From: Candidatus Desulfofervidus auxilii
GTDB taxonomy: Bacteria; Desulfobacterota; Desulfofervidia; Desulfofervidales; Desulfofervidaceae
Direction of reading: 5' to 3'
NCBI GenBank assembly: GCA_030262725.1
Contig: JAJSZS010000008.1
Coordinates: 25,226-89,225 of the forward strand
Length of the DNA: 64,000 nt
A program made the translations under genes and the position numbers. The notes beneath the pieces were generated by a model. The model was not told the DNA's origin. It was given only the letters and a program-made list of their open reading frames with translations, and did not search any database. This document shows positions 5,317 to 14,913 of this stretch, one piece after another. The stretch's first letter is position 1; each line of letters starts with the position of its first letter.

Positions 5317-8300
5317 TTATTTCTCAATCCAAAATTGGGTTATATTAGGCAAGAAAACAGGTTTTTGTTTTACTTCTACTACCTCTCCAGTAGAAAGCTG
5401 CACGTAGCTTTTTAATTCCTTGCCTATCTGTTTTGTTACAATGCTTTCGCCAAGAGCAGGTGCACCTTTGCCAATATGAACATGGGATTGTATTTTATTA
5501 CTTTTGAATGCAACATTCAAATCAAGCAATATAGCAGGTTCTTTATAGGGTATGCCAGCTTTATAATAAATAGAATACAAATATGTATCTCCACCATAAC
5601 CGCAAATGTCATTATTGGGTAGAAAAGAAGTAAACATTGCTAGCTGACCAACAACAACTGGTTTTGAAATAACTCTCTCAGCTGGACTTGAGGTAGATAG
5701 ATTTATTTTCCAACCGTTATAATTGGTCAAGATATAATTAACACAACCATCCCAATCAGTGCCTGTATAACCACCACAACCACTTACAGTGACATTGACT
5801 ACTTCTGTTACTATCTTTTCTGTAGCCATGTTGGTGGTTGTTGAATCAGGATAATCATCAGATGTGCCCCAAATATTATCTTCTCCAGGAGAACACGGCC
5901 CAATAACCCCACCTTCGCAGGCACAAAGATAGGATTTGGCAGTGGCAGAAACCTGAACATTTGTTGCATCAAAAATGTCAGTTACAGTTGAGCAAGTTCC
6001 ATATTCTTTATTTTGTGAGTCCCAACAAGTGTCTTTTATTCCATAAATATACTGTTGAGTATTATCTGTTTTATCAGTTTGACCAAAATATTTCCCTGTA
6101 CCAAAGAAACACCAAAGATTGCCTTGTTCATCAAAAGTCAATTCTGGTGCAGCAGTAACAGGTGCAGCAGCATTATGGAGTGTAGTTATCTGCCAACTTG
6201 CTACATTTGTGCTTTCATTTGTTAAAATCCTAAGCATTTTTCCGGTAAGTGTATTACCTGACTTCTCTACTGTACCACAATAGATAGCTTCTACATTATA
6301 ATCATTATCTGGATCAACTGCTACACAATCACCAACATAGGTATTACTGCCTATCTGTAATTTTCCAACCAAACTTCCATCTCTTAAATCTATAACATAA
6401 ATATAACCTGTACTTGGTGGTGTATCCCCATTATAATCTGTTGGACCAGAACCTAAGACTACATACCAATGACCATTTTCATCTTCATCACCAATCCTGA
6501 CAATGGCTGGATAAGATGTAGTGAAGTTTAAATCAGGATCAGAAAATTCCCAAAGTAATGATGGTGATTCTGGATCAGTAATATCTAAAGCAAAAATAGA
6601 GGGTAGACCTACCCTCTTGCCCTTAACTCAGGGTGCATTACTGGGTGGATTAGGACTGCCACCAAAACGCATCTCACCGATCAAAATAGTTCGCCAACTA
6701 TTTTTACTTTTAGCAGCTGTAGCAGTTCCGTTAATGCTTGCATCAAAAAGCATTGGTCTTTGATCTACATAGTAGATATGACAATAATCTGGATAAGCTA
6801 AATATTTTAAATAAGGTAAAGCATTCATAGGTATGTATGCCCAAAGTTCCTTTGCTACATCTGTTCCTTCAAGTTCGGCTTTAAGACAAGGTTCAGAAGT
6901 TGTTGGGTTTTTGTCATTTACTTTACCTAAATAAAAGCAATGTAACATCCCATCATTTGCTCCAACAAAGAGATAATCTTTGTGCTTATAAATACAGCTA
7001 CCACCTGAACAATCTGAATCTTGAGTACAAGTCTGTGATGGATTATTAGAACATACTTTTTGAGAATAAGTATCTTGGATAAAACTCTCATAAGTATTAT
7101 CCTGATATAAGATATGGTAAAGATTTAATGGAAAATGTGATAATATTCTGGGTGTGGAATAAACAATATCTCCTAATTTCCAAATATGAGTTTCTCCTCC
7201 TATAGTTAATTCCCGATTTCTATGCCCACTACTATTGCATGTGCCTTCATCACTATCCAAACATACATCTACATCTATTCCTCGGACATAATTTATAATA
7301 TTTTCTGCATCGTCATCATCATAAGCTCTGAGATAACGTTTCAAAGTAGAAGCATTGCTTGTTGTAAAATTGCCACTCAATAAAGATGAACTATCTGTTG
7401 AAGTATAGATAGTCCTATCTCCAGCATCCCTTTGCCATAATGCTTTCCCTGCATCCCAAAGAGTTTTTAAATTAGACAATGTTTTTGTCTCATCAGGTGA
7501 ACAAGGAAATGTTACTTTACCATTACAATCTGAACTATATAGATGAATCTTTGTCTCATTATCTTCAAGGAAAAATTTCATAACTTTATCTTCATCTAAG
7601 ATTAATTGCTTATCATTGGTAGTGTTTTCTCTTATCTGCCCATATGGATCAATCCAAAATCCTTTTAAGTGACCAACCCAAGATAACTTTTCATTATTTT
7701 CACTTGTAAAAGAAGGTAAAAAATATGCCTGACAAAAATTACCGCTACCTCTTACTGAAGTGGAAAGCATAGAGACCGCAGTTCCAGAAGAGGCGCGTTT
7801 GAGAATATCGGCAAACACTTTAGAAAGCTTCTCTTCTAATTTTAAAGGATTAGCTACAAAAAAATAGGTATCAGGTTTTCCATCACCATCTTTGTCCCAT
7901 TCATTAGATAAGTCAGGTTTGTTATTATTGTTTATATCTTCAAAACCACCCCATTTTGCTGCATACCAAAGAGGGTTTTTTAAAAGGGTAGCTGCTGAAG
8001 AGCCAGAGATGGTAAATATTTTTTCCCAAGTTAAAGGCATACTAGCAACCACTGAAGGTGTATCGCCATCTCCAGGTGGAGGGGCAGTATCACTGTCTTT
8101 TACTGGTAAATAAAGCCCATCTTCACTGGTTCCAGAAATGACAAATCCCAAAACCTGGTCTATACATCCAGCAGCATAGTCTGAACTTAAGGTAATTTTG
8201 AGCTGATTAGCAGGCAAGGGGGGATTACAGGCATCTCCCACACAATATTCATATTTTACAACGCTATCCATATCATGGTCTGCTCCTTGTTCAACATCTT

Positions 8301-10287
8301 CAAAATTTATTCTAAACTTTCCATAAGTGGGTGTAATCTCTTCGACATAAAAATCTACAATCTGATTGGAAGGACAGTAAGCATTAGAAGAACAATTACT
8401 GATAATTAAACCTCTATCGCTATCATAAGTTAAATTGCATTTTTGCGCGCATGAATTATATACACTAAGACATCCACTAACAGATTTCCCCACAGGAACT
8501 AGGGTAACGGTATGGTCGCCCACTTGAATCTTTATTTCAGGCACAGGAGAAGAAAGGGCTACACTATAGGTAGTTACATTTTCTGCCTTTGTGGGGTCAG
8601 CAAAATTATTTTTAAAATCCGTATGTCCATAATAAGCAAGAGCTGCTGAGTAATAACTACCTTGCTTAGTGGGCTCCTCAGGGCATAAGCCTCTAACCTT
8701 ACTCAAGTCTGAGACATTTTTAGCAGAACAAATAAAATCATATACACCATTACTTTCTCCTATAAAATAGTCTGCCCCTGAAATACCTTCTTCATCTCCT
8801 ATGGTTTTGGCTAATTCAGCTACATCTAAGTCAGAAAGGTCACCTGAATAACTTTCAAAAGCACTCCCTGGCACAGTATCAGAATCATAACTGGGATTGA
8901 TATCACTGATAATTACCATGAAAGGTTTAGAACACCAGGGGAACAATTCAGGAAGCTGAAGGGTATTTCCGGCTTTTTTAATCCCCCAGTCAGGTTTAGG
9001 GAGTAGTAATCCTGTATCACTAGAAGAACTATAAGTAAATTCTGATGTAGGACTTCCCTTACCTGCAAAATACCTCAAAGTTTCGTAAATCATTTCTGCA
9101 ATGGGATTGCCCCACATGCGGCACTCTCCTTCATTTAATGGATGGGTAGTGATCCACCCACACGTATAGCTTCCTTGATAGCTATAATCAGAATATCTAA
9201 ATCCCACTGTTTTTAACCTGTTTAAAGTGAGTATAATATTACCTTCAGTATTTTCCGAAGTTTTAAATATACCTGTATTGGGATTTATTTCATCTGAAAT
9301 AGACCATATATTCTTTCTTAAGACACCCCCACTTAAGTTTTTTGTGTAAGAACCAGTTAAGAGTCCAAAATACATTTGAGCCATATCTACACAGACTCCC
9401 TCATCGCTTTTGCAATCACTATCTGTATTACACGACTTAAAGCTCTTTGAACATACCTTTGTTCCATTTCCCTCACCAAACTTTTGCAAAAGCCCAATGG
9501 GTTTATAGTTCCCATTTGGATATTCTTTGCAGTTTGGTTCAACACCCACAGATGGATCACAAACCTTTACTCTAACATAATATTCACCATCTGGTGTTCC
9601 TAGACTGTTATCACAAACTGGTCTTTCTTTTGATGCCCACTCCCATATTCTATTAGACCTATTAAGTAACACCCTTATTTTGTGTGGCTCGCCTTCACTG
9701 GTAGAAGTTACACAGAAAAGATGCCTTTTACCCGCTGTGGGGGAGTCAAAAGGAGTAAGTAACCTGGTGTCATTACCAAAATATTCCTTTCCCCAGCTAT
9801 GGGCATCTTGAGGGATATAAACTCCTTCTAAAACTGTTTCTGATGAAGAATCCGTGCTTCTATATCCTCCATAAAGCACTTTTCTTAAAACGTCCATCCT
9901 AGACATAGAAAGCCAGTTTAAAAAATTTCCGCTCCATTCATCTTCTCCACCACAATATTTATCAGATGTGATTCTGGTAGGAACAAACTTAGCAGTAGCT
10001 CCAGAACCTTCATATTTGTAACATTTATAAGGGTCAAAGTATCCATAATAATCTATGGAGTGCTTGTATCCTACATCAAGCAGTCCATCTTCATCCAAAT
10101 CAGAGGCATCATTATAAGCCTCATAATAGAGTTTATGGTCTCTTCCCATAACAAGCATTACCAGAGGAGGACCTTGGGCTGAGATAAAAGGAGGCACAGC
10201 GCAATAATTATCCATAGTTTGAGTGAAGGCTAATCTTCCTATTAATGATGTAAAACTTATAAGGAAAATAAATAATATTTTTTTCAT
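5317..10287 (-). CDS. pilY1: PilY1-like pilus tip adhesin, probable selenoprotein
   Basis: A 1656-residue PilC/PilY1 protein read through one TGA at codon 1220. Residues 1-23 are a signal peptide. Typical PilY1 landmarks follow: a von Willebrand-like N-terminal half rich in cysteine, DASDLDEDGLLDVGY near 61, Asp/Asn-rich calcium-type loops (DINNNNKPD, DKDGDGKPD) and ANPLKLEEKLSKVFADIL. The C-terminal propeller (IFALDITDPESP, LLWEFSD, YVVLGSGP) begins after the TGA in the same frame, with no other stop over 4.97 kb. A gene caller that treats TGA as stop gives 6628-10287 plus a fragment below 6579. A SECIS-like hairpin follows the TGA. PilY1 sits at the pilus tip and mediates adhesion and assembly. 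It ends the minor-pilin operon and overlaps the previous gene by ATGA. A plain nonsense mutation is the alternative. Confidence 0.8.
6587..6623 (-). promoter_or_regulatory. SECIS-like hairpin in pilY1
   Basis: On the minus strand AGAGGGT and ACCCTCT pair perfectly around the loop AGGTCT (or eight pairs around GGTC). A lower stem (AGGGCA with TGCTTT, two G-U pairs) lies below a five-base 3' bulge. Exactly 17 bases separate the TGA from AGGTCT. The E. coli fdhF SECIS, as I recall it, has the same loop and the same 17-base distance. The bulged U of fdhF is absent. SelB binding would recode the TGA as selenocysteine. Confidence 0.75.
6628..6630 (-). other. In-frame TGA, likely selenocysteine codon
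   Basis: Codon 1220 of pilY1, in the context SNAP-TGA-VKGKRVG, at the start of the C-terminal propeller. The frame on both sides encodes PilY1 sequence without a gap or shift, so neither a frameshift nor a gene boundary explains the stop. No selA, selB, selC or selD gene is in the window. Confidence 0.75.
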
Positions 10288-10598
10288 CTTTTATACCTCT
10301 CTATTAAAATTTCAGTAACTAAATTGTCTATAACCTTTATAGTAACCCAATCTCCAATTTTAATATCTCTTAAAGATGCAGGATTTTCAAAAAATGCCCC
10401 ATTTACCTCCTTGTGAATGGCTACTCTACAATCTTGAGCAATATAAAAATCTTCTCCCGAAACATTTATATAGTCATAGTTTTTAGAAATAGCATTTACT
10501 TTACCATTAAAATAATAATGGCTGCGTGTAAATCCTGTATGTGTTGGAAAAAACAACATAATTCCTAAACAGATTATAAATAGCCAATTTTTTCTCAT
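10284..10598 (-). CDS. Small exported protein of pilus operon
   Basis: A 104-residue protein with an N-terminal signal (RKNWLFIICLGIMLFFPTHT). The mature part looks all-beta: GKVNAISKNYDYINVSG, then a loop, then ASLRDIKIGDWVTIKV, reminiscent of small OB-like DUF5666 domains. I do not recognise a named family with certainty. It overlaps pilY1 by four bases and lies after the pilX-like gene. Its position is similar to that of the small pilY2 gene of Pseudomonas, although pilY2 follows pilY1 there. A role in PilY1 secretion or calcium handling is a guess. GGAGG precedes the ATG and a likely regulator site lies upstream. Confidence 0.65.
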   Translation of the reverse strand: MRKNWLFIICLGIMLFFPTHTGFTRSHYYFNGKVNAISKNYDYINVSGEDFYIAQDCRVAIHKEVNGAFFENPASLRDIKIGDWVTIKVIDNLVTEILIERYKR

Positions 10599-10629
10599 GT
10601 TTTCCTCCTCTATTCTTCTTTATTACTCC

Positions 10630-10652
10630 ATTTATTGTGAAAAAATCGTGAA
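10630..10652 (-). promoter_or_regulatory. OmpR-type regulator site upstream of pilY1 pair
   Basis: On the minus strand TTCACGATTTTTTCACAA contains two TTCACR half-sites repeated at 11 bases, the geometry of OmpR/PhoB-family sites. The 23-base segment occurs again exactly at 13127-13149. It sits in the only real gap of the pilus operon, about 30 bases before the 104-residue gene. A weak TAATAA lies 9 bases after the second half-site, as in Pho-type promoters. Confidence 0.5.
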
Positions 10653-10661
10653 GTGTATGTG

Positions 10662-11105
10662 TTAATATCCTTTTACATACATAATATATAAATCTGCTTG
10701 ACTATTGTGTTTGGTAGCCTGAGAATGGACAAGGTAATAAATACCAACACCAGCTACTCCTGTATAAGCTCCTGAAATAGGAGGGAAAACTGGCACTCCT
10801 TTAAATCCAGCAAGAGGTTTCCAAAATACTTGCCATATTTCATAAAAATCATTAGGATCGCCAGGATCACCAGTTTGAGGGTTATTATTGATTAAATTTT
10901 GTAGTTGTCCATATGTTTTTGTTTCTAAATCTATTATTGCTTCTTCTATTCCTCCCTGTGCCATTTGAAGAGCTATATTGTAGTTTTTAGCACTACCATA
11001 TGTTTGATAGCCTCTTGTGCATAGATATGTAATAAGACCTATCAAAATTATTCCCATAATCATTACCATTAGTACTGTTAATAAAGCTATCCCTTTGTTA
11101 TTCAT
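10662..11105 (-). CDS. PilX-like minor pilin
   Basis: A 147-residue inner-membrane-anchored pseudopilin. The N-terminus MNNKGIALLTVLMVMIMGI has the basic leader, a glycine cleavage site and a long hydrophobic helix, but no glutamate at mature position 5. PilX and GspK proteins also deviate here, and that glutamate helps subunit docking in other pilins. The C-terminal part is a small globular domain without recognised motif. It overlaps the PilW-like gene by one base, which implies translational coupling. Order and size match the fimU-pilV-pilW-pilX-pilY1 cluster of Pseudomonas. It probably joins the tip complex that holds PilY1. Confidence 0.75.
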   Translation of the reverse strand: MNNKGIALLTVLMVMIMGIILIGLITYLCTRGYQTYGSAKNYNIALQMAQGGIEEAIIDLETKTYGQLQNLINNNPQTGDPGDPNDFYEIWQVFWKPLAGFKGVPVFPPISGAYTGVAGVGIYYLVHSQATKHNSQADLYIMYVKGY

Positions 11106-12127
11106 TATTGTAACTCCCTTAAAGGTATTTCTAAGGTAATTGTGCGCCAGCGATAATGGCGTAATTCACTATTAAGGTTAACAATGTTATCTGCTGTACT
11201 TATTGTGGCGTTTGGATAATTATAAGAAGGATCTCTTTTTCCATACTGTTTTACAATAAAAATACGCACAAGTCTAAGTCGATTTTTTAATGTAACTGGA
11301 GCTTCTCCAGAAATATCATCTTCCCATGTAACATTACCTGCAGGATCTATAAGCCCAAATTGAACTTGGAAATCTAATACTCCATCTAAAATAGGCATAG
11401 ATGAACCATAAACACGACATAATGAGCATATATTATTTGCATTACAACTGCATAAACGATAGCCTGTAAAAGTATTTAAAAAATAATCTTGAAAAGTATT
11501 AATGTTATTTCCAGCATCAGTTTTACTGATGCCTCCAAGACTAAAAGCAAATACAGTTTTTATATCAGCTATAAAACCTGTAGCATTATTTAAACTGAGA
11601 TTATTTCCTGCTACGCCTTGGATTGTATATATGTTTCCAAAAAGTTCTTTTGTTTCAGTATTTAAAAAGACAATTTTATCGTTGCTTTCAAACTGGGGGA
11701 AGTTAGGATAACTAGGAGCAGGAGTTTCTTGGTTTGAGGTGATAGTGACAGTTGTATCTGTAGCATTGATATAGCTTGTATTATATCCCCATTTCATATA
11801 ATTATCAGCAGCAGAAGAAATAGAAGCTCCTTTAATTATTAATTCATCAGAATTATTTTGGCCATTATTATTGTTTGAACCTATAGGCACAAAGTAGTCT
11901 GTAGCTACAATTCTTACAATAACAGGGACTCCTAGTCCTGCCATGGCTACATCTCTTAATAATATAGATTCAGATACAATGCCTGTTTGTGTAGTCCTTG
12001 TTTTTGCGGCTTCTTGATAAGAGCGTTTAGTTAGGTTAGACAAAAATGTTAATGTAGCTGAAGTGAGGATAATAAATATTACCATTATTACTAAAAGCTC
12101 CGCCAATGTCATACCTCTGTTTTGCAT
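11105..12127 (-). CDS. PilW-like minor pilin
   Basis: A 340-residue pseudopilin, the largest of the set, as PilW usually is. The prepilin peptidase motif is clear: MQNRG followed by MTLAELLVIMVIFIIL with glutamate at mature position 5. The long C-terminal domain has a CSCNANNICSLC cysteine cluster near residue 228, which may form disulfides or bind metal. It starts directly at the stop of the PilV-like gene and shares one base with the PilX-like gene. It is expected to be a tip component in the periplasm. Family assignment rests on N-terminus, size and gene order. Confidence 0.78.
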   Translation of the reverse strand: MQNRGMTLAELLVIMVIFIILTSATLTFLSNLTKRSYQEAAKTRTTQTGIVSESILLRDVAMAGLGVPVIVRIVATDYFVPIGSNNNNGQNNSDELIIKGASISSAADNYMKWGYNTSYINATDTTVTITSNQETPAPSYPNFPQFESNDKIVFLNTETKELFGNIYTIQGVAGNNLSLNNATGFIADIKTVFAFSLGGISKTDAGNNINTFQDYFLNTFTGYRLCSCNANNICSLCRVYGSSMPILDGVLDFQVQFGLIDPAGNVTWEDDISGEAPVTLKNRLRLVRIFIVKQYGKRDPSYNYPNATISTADNIVNLNSELRHYRWRTITLEIPLRELQ

Positions 12128-12675
12128 TATGGTTGCCTCTTTATTGTTTCTAAAGTCACAAAATGAGGTGTACTAGTGTTGTTTCCTTCAAACCAATAAA
12201 CAACAACAACTATATTTTTCCAATCAGCTGCAGTATCTATTCCCCAAATTTTATAATAAGTCTTAGAAGAAACTCTTGTGATAGGAGTAATTGTATTATA
12301 AGTTGTGATAGCTAAAGCAGTACTTGGATGGTCTATACCATTTGTTGCATCATTTGCGTCTGCTATATCTGCATTTCCATCATATTGATCATTTCCATTG
12401 TCTAACAAGTAAACATTACCATTACCATTTGGGTCAGGATGTGGATTATTTATAAAGGTATTGTTGTTTACAATATCACTCAAAAGTTCATCATTATAAG
12501 GCAAATTTGTTAGATAATTTATTGTTGCTTCAGCAATTTGAATAGCAGTTTTTTTATGCTCTAAATAGGCATTATGTTTTATGATAGTTACAGTAGCATG
12601 AGTTAATGCTATTAATATGATTCCAAGTATAGTTAAAGCTATCATTACTTCTACAAGCGTAAATCCTTTTTTCAT
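12127..12675 (-). CDS. PilV-like minor pilin
   Basis: A 182-residue pseudopilin with a canonical type IV leader: MKKG followed by FTLVEVMIALTILGIILIAL, glutamate at mature position 5. The globular domain holds an Asp/Asn-rich stretch (NGNDQYDGNADIADAND) that could bind calcium. It overlaps the preceding pseudopilin gene by four bases (ATGA) and the next gene by one base. Expected to be processed by a prepilin peptidase encoded elsewhere and built into the pilus tip. Confidence 0.78.
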   Translation of the reverse strand: MKKGFTLVEVMIALTILGIILIALTHATVTIIKHNAYLEHKKTAIQIAEATINYLTNLPYNDELLSDIVNNNTFINNPHPDPNGNGNVYLLDNGNDQYDGNADIADANDATNGIDHPSTALAITTYNTITPITRVSSKTYYKIWGIDTAADWKNIVVVVYWFEGNNTSTPHFVTLETIKRQP

Positions 12676-13109
12676 TGTATCCTTATCCTAAATATTGACA
12701 CTGAAATTTGTTTTGTTTTTCCATTATTATGCGTTAAAGTAAGTGTGAATGACTGATCTGGTGTGCCCTTGCGAGTGAAAAGGACTCTATTGTTAGCAGG
12801 GTATCCAGAAAGAGTGATGTTATTAAGATTTCTTGTTTCCAATTCTTCTCCTGTATCGTATGCATTGTTATCATTTTGGTCTTCAAAAATAGTATAGCTA
12901 TTTGGCACAAACTGGATGCCAAATCTGTGTGCATTACCAAGAGATTTTTGCCTTGCCCATTCTAAATCAGAATATAATTGGTTTGTTGCATCAGTTAGGT
13001 TATAATTTGCTACAAGATGTTTAAAGCCGATAGTGCCAAGACCTAATAATATAACCAAAATTCCTATAACTACTAAGAGCTCAGTTAAAGTTACACCTTT
13101 AACTCCCAT
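12672..13109 (-). CDS. FimT/FimU/GspH-like minor pilin
   Basis: A 145-residue pseudopilin with leader MGVKG followed by VTLTELLVVIGILVILLG, glutamate at mature position 5. The following FKHLVANYNLTDATNQLYSDLEWARQKSL is typical of GspH/FimT proteins. It is first of the four minor pilins and follows the kinase gene, sharing one base with it. The perfect copy of the TTCAC double site lies just upstream of its start, inside the 3' end of the kinase gene. Probably a core initiator of minor pilin assembly. Confidence 0.78.
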   Translation of the reverse strand: MGVKGVTLTELLVVIGILVILLGLGTIGFKHLVANYNLTDATNQLYSDLEWARQKSLGNAHRFGIQFVPNSYTIFEDQNDNNAYDTGEELETRNLNNITLSGYPANNRVLFTRKGTPDQSFTLTLTHNNGKTKQISVSIFRIRIQ

Positions 13110-14086
13110 TACTTATTCCTTATACTATTTATTGTGAAAAAATCGTGAAACTTTCTTGTAGGAAACAAACATTTAAGTTCGAAATAACCATCTTTTTCAT
13201 TATAAAAAAGTTTCATTTTATACCTTTCACCTAGTCTTTTAGCAAGTGTTAAGCCAATGCCGCTTCCTTTTGGAACATTAGGATTAATATCGTTTTTTAT
13301 AAACAAAACAATATTTTTGGCTTCATTATATAAAGAAATATATATCTCTTTTTCTGCATATTTTACAGCATTTTCAATTAAAAGATAAAAAATCATTCCT
13401 AAATCTGTCTGATTAGCGGTAAGTTTTGTTTCTTTTAGGTTCAATATAATTTTCTTATTGTTTAAAATCTCTCTAAACTGTTGAAGAATTAATTCAATAA
13501 GTGTTTTTAGATCTATGTTTTTTACATTTATTTTTCTAGCCTTAAAGTTTCGTATAATATTTAATGTGTGTTTAAATTCTGTTTCAATGAAATTATAACT
13601 TTTATTTAATCTATCTAAAGCAGGGGATGAAATTTTTTGTTTAAGGATTTCTAGATTCAATTTTTGTATAGCTAAAAAATTGCCTAATTTATGTGAGAGA
13701 GTAAGAAGGATAAGTTCTAAAAATTTTCTATTTTCTTCTCTTTCTCTTATATGGTGCCATAAAAGTTTATAAAAAATGTAAGTAAGAGCAAAGATTAAAA
13801 AAGTTTCCCAGAGAAAAAGATTTAAAGCAAAATTTTTTGTTTTTTTGTTTACATGATCTAGATTTATATAGACAAATTTTCCATTGAGCGAAGGAGTAAG
13901 AAGTAGCCAATTTTTTTCATTAATTATAGAATTAGATATTTTAAAATATTCAGGAAGATTTTGATTTTTGTTCTCACGAATAAGTTTTAATTCTGTTTCT
14001 ACCTTATCATAAAAGGCATTTAGAAGAGAAAGTTTATAAAAGCTGATGGCAACAAAATTAAGAGCAGATATACCCAATGTAAGCAT
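13109..14086 (-). CDS. Membrane sensor histidine kinase
   Basis: A 325-residue kinase from the ATG at 14086. A first hydrophobic segment at the N-terminus, a periplasmic stretch of about 65 residues and a second membrane helix near 88-108 precede the DHp helix with His132 in LSHKLGNF. ATPase motifs follow: LLIENAVKYAE (N box) and GSGIGLTLAKRLGERY (G2 box). No ribosome binding site precedes the ATG, and the frame stays open upstream with more hydrophobic residues (HRILIAFFI). An AUU at 14131-14129, preceded by AGAGG, could be the true start and would overlap the regulator stop. Partner of the adjacent OmpR-type regulator; likely controls minor pilin genes. Confidence 0.8.
   Translation of the reverse strand: MLTLGISALNFVAISFYKLSLLNAFYDKVETELKLIRENKNQNLPEYFKISNSIINEKNWLLLTPSLNGKFVYINLDHVNKKTKNFALNLFLWETFLIFALTYIFYKLLWHHIREREENRKFLELILLTLSHKLGNFLAIQKLNLEILKQKISSPALDRLNKSYNFIETEFKHTLNIIRNFKARKINVKNIDLKTLIELILQQFREILNNKKIILNLKETKLTANQTDLGMIFYLLIENAVKYAEKEIYISLYNEAKNIVLFIKNDINPNVPKGSGIGLTLAKRLGERYKMKLFYNEKDGYFELKCLFPTRKFHDFFTINSIRNK
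13127..13149 (-). promoter_or_regulatory. Second copy of OmpR-type regulator site
   Basis: Identical over 23 bases to 10630-10652, with TTCAC half-sites 11 bases apart. It lies within the last codons of the kinase gene, 18-40 bases before the ATG of the first minor pilin gene. TATAAG follows eight bases after the second half-site's TTCACA. Confidence 0.5.
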
Positions 14087-14836: not shown

Positions 14837-14913
14837 CGGGACGTAGCTCAGTTTGGCAGAGCACAGCGTTCGGGACGCTGGGGTCGCAGGTTCAAATCCT
14901 GTCGTCCCGACCA
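14837..14913 (+). tRNA. tRNA-Pro (anticodon CGG)
   Basis: A 77-base tRNA with encoded CCA. The acceptor stem CGGGACG pairs with CGTCCCG. D arm GCTC/GAGC, anticodon stem CAGCG/CGCTG with loop TTCGGGA, T arm GCAGG/CCTGT with loop TTCAAAT. The anticodon CGG reads CCG, proline. It stands alone on the plus strand between minus-strand genes and ends five bases from the stop of the next gene. Confidence 0.95.

What the first reader, a model, noticed from the sequence alone, without database searches (positions are those of the whole stretch)
5317..10287. PilY1 appears to be a selenoprotein
The pilY1 frame is open for 1656 codons except for a single TGA at codon 1220 (6630-6628, minus strand). PilY1 sequence continues in the same frame directly after it. 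Seventeen bases beyond the TGA a stem with the loop AGGUCU begins; the E. coli fdhF SECIS, from memory, has the same loop at the same distance. A random nonsense mutation would not bring such a hairpin. I know of no description of PilY1 as a selenoprotein. A selenol near the pilus tip propeller could add redox chemistry, disulfide control or metal binding to an adhesin in an anaerobe.
Basis: partly seen in the sequence, partly recalled or inferred. Interest (0 to 1): 0.95.

Follow-up and report, generated by a model that had tools for sequence, protein, structure and literature searches.

The report
Selenium-containing pilus tip protein (PilY1)
Two related bacterial genomes carry a UGA stop codon at the same place inside the gene for the pilus-tip protein PilY1, followed by nearly the same hairpin, and the cell is predicted to insert selenocysteine there, which would make this a selenium-containing pilus protein, a kind for which our literature searches found no report.

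Summary
The pilY1 frame (10287-5317, minus strand) has one in-frame TGA at codon 1220. A 7-bp stem with loop AGGUCU follows, the loop starting 17 nt after the TGA. It meets the published rules for bacterial SECIS elements; six Thr- or Val-coding relatives lack such a hairpin.

Close relatives have Cys (4), Thr, Val or Leu there.

The genome has selA, selB, tRNA-Sec(UCA) and a TGA-containing selD, plus a TGA-containing formate dehydrogenase. Thus selenocysteine insertion is very likely. A 2026 catalogue of 119 families and the paper searches showed no pilus selenoprotein.

What selenium does is inferred. In a predicted structure the residue sits in a short hairpin loop that solved PilY1 lacks. 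Cys relatives have a second Cys in this loop, Sec forms do not, so an unpaired, exposed selenol is the best guess. No protein-level evidence exists yet.

The parts
5317..10287 (-). pilY1, 1,656 codons plus stop, read through one in-frame TGA
   Evidence: PF05567 58.1 bits over cut-off 28.1; only PF05567 match found in the genome
6628..6630 (-). in-frame TGA, codon 1220, predicted selenocysteine codon
   Evidence: TGA at the same codon in G001
6598..6617 (-). predicted SECIS hairpin AGAGGGU-AGGUCU-ACCCUCU; loop starts 17 nt after the TGA
   Evidence: rules from PMC13188914
6007..6975 (-). PilY1 beta-propeller domain match (residues 1105-1427), interrupted by the TGA
   Evidence: PF05567; 3hx6 match
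10284..14086 (-). six upstream open frames on the same strand, likely minor pilins: GspH (12672-13109), N-methylation motif (12127-12675), weak PilW below cut-off (11105-12127), three without a Pfam match

Best explanation
The in-frame UGA at codon 1220 of pilY1 is likely translated as selenocysteine, directed by the hairpin that starts 10 bases downstream, which would give a full-length 1,656-residue PilY1 with one selenocysteine in its propeller domain. Shown: the TGA, the hairpin, their conservation in a second genus, purifying selection beyond the TGA, Cys in some relatives, and a genome with the whole insertion machinery. Inferred: SelB with Sec-tRNA(UCA) binds the hairpin and decodes the UGA; the protein is exported and sits at the type IV pilus tip. 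Inferred and least certain: residue 1220 lies in a short exposed hairpin loop between two propeller strands. Cys-bearing relatives have a second Cys in that loop, which would clasp it by a disulfide. The Sec forms lack that Cys, so the selenol would be unpaired and free to make a selenenyl-sulfide or metal bond with a minor pilin, a cytochrome or a partner surface. The UGA would also make full-length PilY1 depend on selenium supply.
For: Machinery in the own genome: selB 392 bits, selA 637.7, selD 385 with one TGA, tRNA-Sec 76.7 bits with anticodon UCA; formate dehydrogenase with TGA in ...RI-U-HSATV. Same TGA, same codon, same AGGTCT loop in G001. Cut-out hairpin -12.1 and -9.5 kcal/mol in the two TGA genes, against 0 to -4.6 in six Thr or Val relatives at the same place. 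Codons 4-10 after the TGA: 6 of 6 same-residue codons are identical between the two genes, against 143 of 272 in the whole downstream part; 2 of 294 comparable overlapping windows, the site's own included, do so. Downstream of the TGA dN/dS 0.17 with dS 1.53 over 429 codons. P0121 and P0122 end exactly at the preceding residue; P0205-P0207 begin at the next codon. Cys at the exact column in P0003, P0005, P0007, P0010. Of 395 genomes of the phylum 207 matched, and among the listed matches (list cut) the only internal stops were these two TGAs. The TGA falls inside the propeller, so termination would leave a partial fold.
Against: Thr, Val or Leu at the site in 7 distinct close relatives (P0001 = G002, G003, P0002, P0004, P0006, P0008, P0009) and Val in L056, so a thiol or selenol is not needed for PilY1 in general. 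Only two genes with TGA were available as DNA; the stop codon of P0121 and P0122 could not be read. In a 48-nt stretch of G001 the lowest-energy fold is a different pairing (-13.0 kcal/mol) and the SECIS-type hairpin alone scores -8.2 there. A plainer measure of DNA conservation at the hairpin is less striking: 28 of 669 eight-codon windows are as identical, and the 100-column window holding the site has dS 0.86, lower than the rest. The hairpin has no bulged U such as I recall for fdhF. Rfam gave no SECIS match even at E up to 5 (whether it holds a bacterial SECIS family was not checked). No Sec-specific partner Cys was found elsewhere in the domain. The loop is modelled at block pLDDT 68-79 and no coordinates were available. 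No peptide or 75Se evidence.
Confidence: 0.9

Rival explanations
1. The TGA is a true stop: PilY1 is made as a 1,219-residue truncated protein, and the 3' part is decaying or made separately.
For: Listed open frames split the gene at the TGA, as do database proteins P0121, P0122 and P0205-P0207. A TTG start exists at 6372.
Against: dN/dS 0.17 over 429 downstream codons argues against decay, and the first 142 codons after the TGA, most of which lie before that TTG, are 69.7% identical with dN/dS 0.16; the stop lies inside the propeller; same stop and same loop in two genera; the other PilY1 matches listed for the phylum are uninterrupted.
Confidence: 0.05
2. UGA is decoded, but by something other than Sec insertion: near-cognate read-through, or a Cys-tRNA that reads UGA, so that the residue is Trp or Cys.
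For: selC* tRNA-Cys with a UCA anticodon is described in Desulfobacterales (passage of PMC7609411); selC*-like tRNA-Cys genes occur in this family.
Against: The selC*-like tRNAs that Aragorn called here (G001, G003, G004) carry GCA, not UCA. In the own genome the eight best tRNA-Sec matches hold one UCA tRNA, the tRNA-Sec itself; the other seven are Ser, Gly, Leu and Trp tRNAs. TGA ends 8 of 47 open frames of 180 codons or more in the window, the site itself among the 8, so the code looks standard. A SECIS-type hairpin is not expected for simple read-through.
Confidence: 0.04
3. Sequencing or assembly error, or a recent nonsense mutation.
For: The window genome is a draft of 72 contigs.
Against: The one-contig genome G001 has the same TGA at the same codon, and a 98%-identical 3' piece, P0204, with 10 member sequences, is likewise listed without its 5' part.
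Confidence: 0.01

Closest known systems
Bacterial selenoproteins with in-frame UGA and SECIS (formate dehydrogenase FdhA, SelD)
   Same: In-frame UGA, hairpin within the published spacing and stability limits, Sec machinery in the genome, Cys in some homologues. A formate dehydrogenase gene and selD of this genome also carry TGA.
   Different: Those are enzymes with a catalytic Sec. Here most of the close non-Sec relatives have Thr, Val or Leu and the protein is a pilus-tip adhesin with no known catalysis.
PilY1 / PilC type IV pilus tip adhesin (PF05567; 3hx6, P. aeruginosa PilY1 C-terminal domain)
   Different: 3hx6 has a tight turn where this protein has the Sec-bearing loop (alignment).
Extracytoplasmic selenoproteins of electroactive bacteria (ExtKL multihaem cytochrome, MtrB/PioB-type barrel, TonB receptor; Table 1 of PMC13188914)
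   Same: Cell-surface or outer-membrane proteins predicted to hold Sec; that some are from electroactive bacteria is recalled.
   Different: None is a pilus or adhesin protein.

Membership tests
bacterial selenoprotein | in-frame UGA with coding sequence continuing beyond it under purifying selection | tested here: met
bacterial selenoprotein | SECIS downstream: stem 4-16 bp, loop 3-9 nt, G in its first two positions, 16-37 nt from UGA, MFE at or below -7.5 | tested here: met
   Rules read in PMC13188914; 7-8 bp, loop 6 or 4 nt, spacing 17 or 18, cut-out hairpin -12.1 (window) and -9.5 kcal/mol (G001). In a longer G001 stretch another pairing is lower.
bacterial selenoprotein | selA, selB, selC, selD in the genome | tested here: met
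bacterial selenoprotein | homologues with Cys or UGA at the same column | tested here: met
   UGA in G001; Cys in 4 close homologues; but Thr, Val or Leu in 7 others and in L056
bacterial selenoprotein | selenium or Sec shown in the protein | not testable with these tools
   needs mass spectrometry or 75Se
PilY1 (PF05567) | PilY1 propeller domain over the curated cut-off | tested here: met
   58.1 against 28.1 bits
Neisseria-type PilC (NF040838) | score over the curated cut-off | tested here: not met
   39.8 against 350 bits
PilY1 (PF05567) | location at the type IV pilus tip | not testable with these tools
   inferred from family and neighbouring genes

The most novel reading that the evidence does not exclude
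Selenium-gated pilus tips: the bacterial partners of methane-eating archaea display an unpaired selenol on the tip of their type IV pili, which forms covalent but reversible Se-S or Se-metal bonds with cytochromes or the archaeal surface, and only selenium-fed cells can make the tip protein.
Probability: 0.12. Interest if true: 0.95.

Novelty: new variant of a known kind. Interest (0 to 1): 0.8.

Why it matters
It would be a selenoprotein at a pilus tip, outside the usual redox-enzyme repertoire, and it would put Sec on the cell surface of HotSeep-1, whose PilY1 was singled out from expression data as a candidate in the partnership with ANME-1 archaea (PMC10553843, passages). One PF05567 PilY1 was found in the HotSeep-1 genome, and that is the gene with the TGA, so annotations and proteomic databases that stop at the TGA would miss its C-terminal quarter. 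It also gives a case in which Sec seems to come and go at a site where Thr is tolerated.

Tried and rejected
Searching for a Cys that co-occurs only with Sec: none found (four of its 19 rows were not trimmed as planned because the trimming motif was missing, and the four 3' pieces have no part before the site). A first version of the tree script failed and was redone. Rfam at a loose threshold: no SECIS or other meaningful RNA family. One scan of genome contigs gave 27 loci; 4 of 27 gave no readable site by the motif used, and the sites printed for the other 23 show no stop; that tool may leave out the window's own and very near genomes. A search of another phylum was planned and dropped (error). 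The structure tool returned no coordinates, so distances from residue 1220 were not measured. The SelD hairpin reached only -5.4 kcal/mol under my contiguous-stem rule, which does not allow a bulge, so that rule is too strict as a general SECIS test. In the second tree I labelled P0208-P0210 as Sec 3' pieces; this is not shown, since they start well downstream of the site.

Rejected: assembly error, decay, and a changed genetic code (see rivals).
Full report
The observation. The minus-strand frame 10287-5317 is open for 1,656 codons but for one TGA at codon 1220. Ten bases after the TGA begins the stem AGAGGGU/ACCCUCU with loop AGGUCU, the loop starting 17 bases after the TGA. The hairpin is in the MFE and centroid folds, though the 61-base stretch as a whole is only 1.48 standard deviations below shuffles (15 of 200 shuffles fold as well). 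Against the published bacterial SECIS rules (stem 4-16 bp, loop 3-9 nt, G in the first two loop positions, 16-37 nt spacing, at most -7.5 kcal/mol; passage of PMC13188914 seen) it passes on all counts. In the window 18 of 1,961 TGA triplets pass a simplified form of these rules, 2 of 1,961 reach -10 kcal/mol, and only this one has AGGTCT at +17.

The host. The window lies in a genome of 2,268,002 bases. That is exactly the size given for Candidatus Desulfofervidaceae sp. 2, Pescadero Basin vent, and the 2,540,211-base G001 contig is exactly the size given for HotSeep-1, Candidatus Desulfofervidus auxilii (table passage of PMC10553843). The identification rests on these sizes. The own genome holds selA, selB, tRNA-Sec with anticodon UCA and a selD with TGA. 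A formate dehydrogenase gene also has TGA, at ...RI-U-HSATV, with a hairpin of -9.7 kcal/mol; the selD hairpin reaches -5.4 by the same strict contiguous-stem rule. So UGA appears to be read as Sec elsewhere in this genome. TGA ends 8 of 47 open frames of 180 codons or more in the window, the pilY1 site among the 8 (these frames were not shown to be genes), so the code looks standard. Of the eight own-genome matches to the tRNA-Sec family that were kept as loci, only the tRNA-Sec itself reads UGA.

Conservation. Of 99 genomes searched, the own one included, 45 have a match to the propeller part; of 64 listed match segments, not all of which reach the site, the only two with an internal stop are the window gene and G001, both TGA. 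They are at the same codon with the same AGGTCT loop, the stem differing by one G-C to G-U change. A wider search of 395 genomes of the phylum matched 207; among the matches listed (the list was cut) again only these two have a stop. Downstream of the TGA the two genes share 65.7% of residues over 429 codons, with dN 0.265, dS 1.53 and dN/dS 0.17, so the 3' part is under selection and well diverged; the 100-column window holding the site is less diverged (dS 0.86). The hairpin codons are conserved beyond their residues: 6 of 6 same-residue codons are identical, against 143 of 272 for the downstream part, and 2 of 294 comparable overlapping windows (the site's own included) do as well; by plain identity over eight codons, 28 of 669 windows are as high. 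By eye in the alignments, the window protein has Pro where the close relatives shown have Ser (GLPS against GLSS or GYSS); this TCC-to-CCC difference gives a G-C pair where G001 has G-U.

Against it: in a 48-base stretch of G001 the lowest-energy fold is another pairing (-13.0 kcal/mol), while the SECIS-type hairpin alone scores -8.2 there and -9.5 when cut out.

More cases. A search with the part before the site found P0121 (1,443 aa, 38 member sequences) and P0122 (865 aa, 5 members), which both end at ...GGSPNPPSDAP, the residue just before the site. A search with the part after it found P0205, P0206 and P0207, which start one codon after the site with M-N-(N/D)-KRVGLSS, and P0204, 98% identical to the window's 3' part. 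Their DNA could not be read, so their stop codon is inferred. In a tree of the part upstream of the site P0122 falls inside a supported clade with Thr forms (100/99), apart from the window gene and G001; if P0122 is a Sec form, supported branches require at least two changes of the Sec state.

The residue in relatives. Of the 141 sequences aligned at the site, the close relatives (P0001-P0010, G002, G003; G002 and P0001 are the same protein) have Cys in P0003, P0005, P0007 and P0010, Thr in P0001, P0002, P0004, P0006 and G003, Val in P0008 and Leu in P0009; L056 has Val. Further relatives vary in loop length, many with a C..C(V/I)KTP motif at a neighbouring place. So the site is a tolerant loop, not a fixed catalytic position. 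The four Cys forms carry a second Cys 9-10 residues later in a longer loop; Sec, Thr, Val and Leu forms lack it. No Cys elsewhere in the domain goes with Sec alone. In six Thr or Val relatives whose DNA was folded at the same place (G002, G003, L056-L059) the hairpin is absent or weak (0 to -4.6 kcal/mol, against -12.1 and -9.5 in the two TGA genes). No Cys-form DNA was available. All five relatives G001-G005 have selB, so Thr forms are not explained by loss of selB; a tRNA-Sec match of 76 bits or more is seen in G001, G003 and G004, while in the incomplete G002 the best is 58.6 bits beside its second selB.

Mechanism. Committed reading: SelB brings Sec-tRNA to the UGA through the hairpin (inferred from family knowledge); full-length PilY1 with Sec1220 is exported to the pilus tip (inferred); the selenol is unpaired and exposed and may bond to a partner protein or metal (inferred, weak). 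A second consequence would be that full-length PilY1 depends on selenium supply.

Novelty. Paper searches for PilY1 with selenoprotein (0 papers) and for selenoprotein with type IV pil, SECIS and bacteria (0 papers) found nothing. Selenoprotein with pilus and selenocysteine gave 8 papers, of which I looked into two by passages (PMC1914089, PMC1242214; both cite an amber read-through in an E. coli pilus gene) and judged the rest by title. Selenoprotein, PilC, adhesin and pilus tip, two of four terms, gave 450 papers, of which the 10 listed hold no 'selenoprotein'. The 2026 catalogue of 119 families (PMC13188914; abstract, all of section 7 and passages read) lists no pilus protein, and no word beginning with 'pil' occurs in its text. 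In the deep-Sep paper (PMC12013277, passages) 'pil' occurs only in an author's name. Of PMC9312934, PMC1794560, PMC5539420 and PMC7609411 I saw passages only. Subscription papers and preprints are not covered. PMC10553843 (passages) names PilY1 as seemingly important in HotSeep-1 and has no occurrence of selenoprotein or selenocysteine in its main text.

Noticed in passing
L091 2298-4334 (G003:C15); also G002:C57, G004:C36: A second selB-like gene next to a tRNA-Sec-like tRNA-Cys (GCA) in G003 and G004 (in G002 next to an Rfam tRNA-Sec match that Aragorn did not call), beside a NiFe hydrogenase large subunit in G003. This fits the known selC*/selB* pairs (PMC7609411, passages). G000 and G001 have one selB match over the cut-off.
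   Followed up: partly
window 10287 to about 7900 (-), compared with L050: pilY1 looks like a mosaic: the N-terminal half is 90% identical to HotSeep-1 with dS about 0.5, while the C-terminal half is 64-77% identical with dS above 1.3 in the large segments, suggesting exchange of the N-terminal module.
   Followed up: partly
G000:C1:98644 onward (L096): Formate dehydrogenase gene split by a TGA at the UHSATV motif, with a downstream hairpin: a second probable selenoprotein besides SelD.
   Followed up: partly
L087 (G004): G004 has one PilY1-family gene of a different type, with only a short turn where the Sec-bearing loop lies.
   Followed up: no
window 14837-14913 (+): Single tRNA-Pro (CGG) between the response-regulator gene and a radical-SAM gene.
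   Followed up: no
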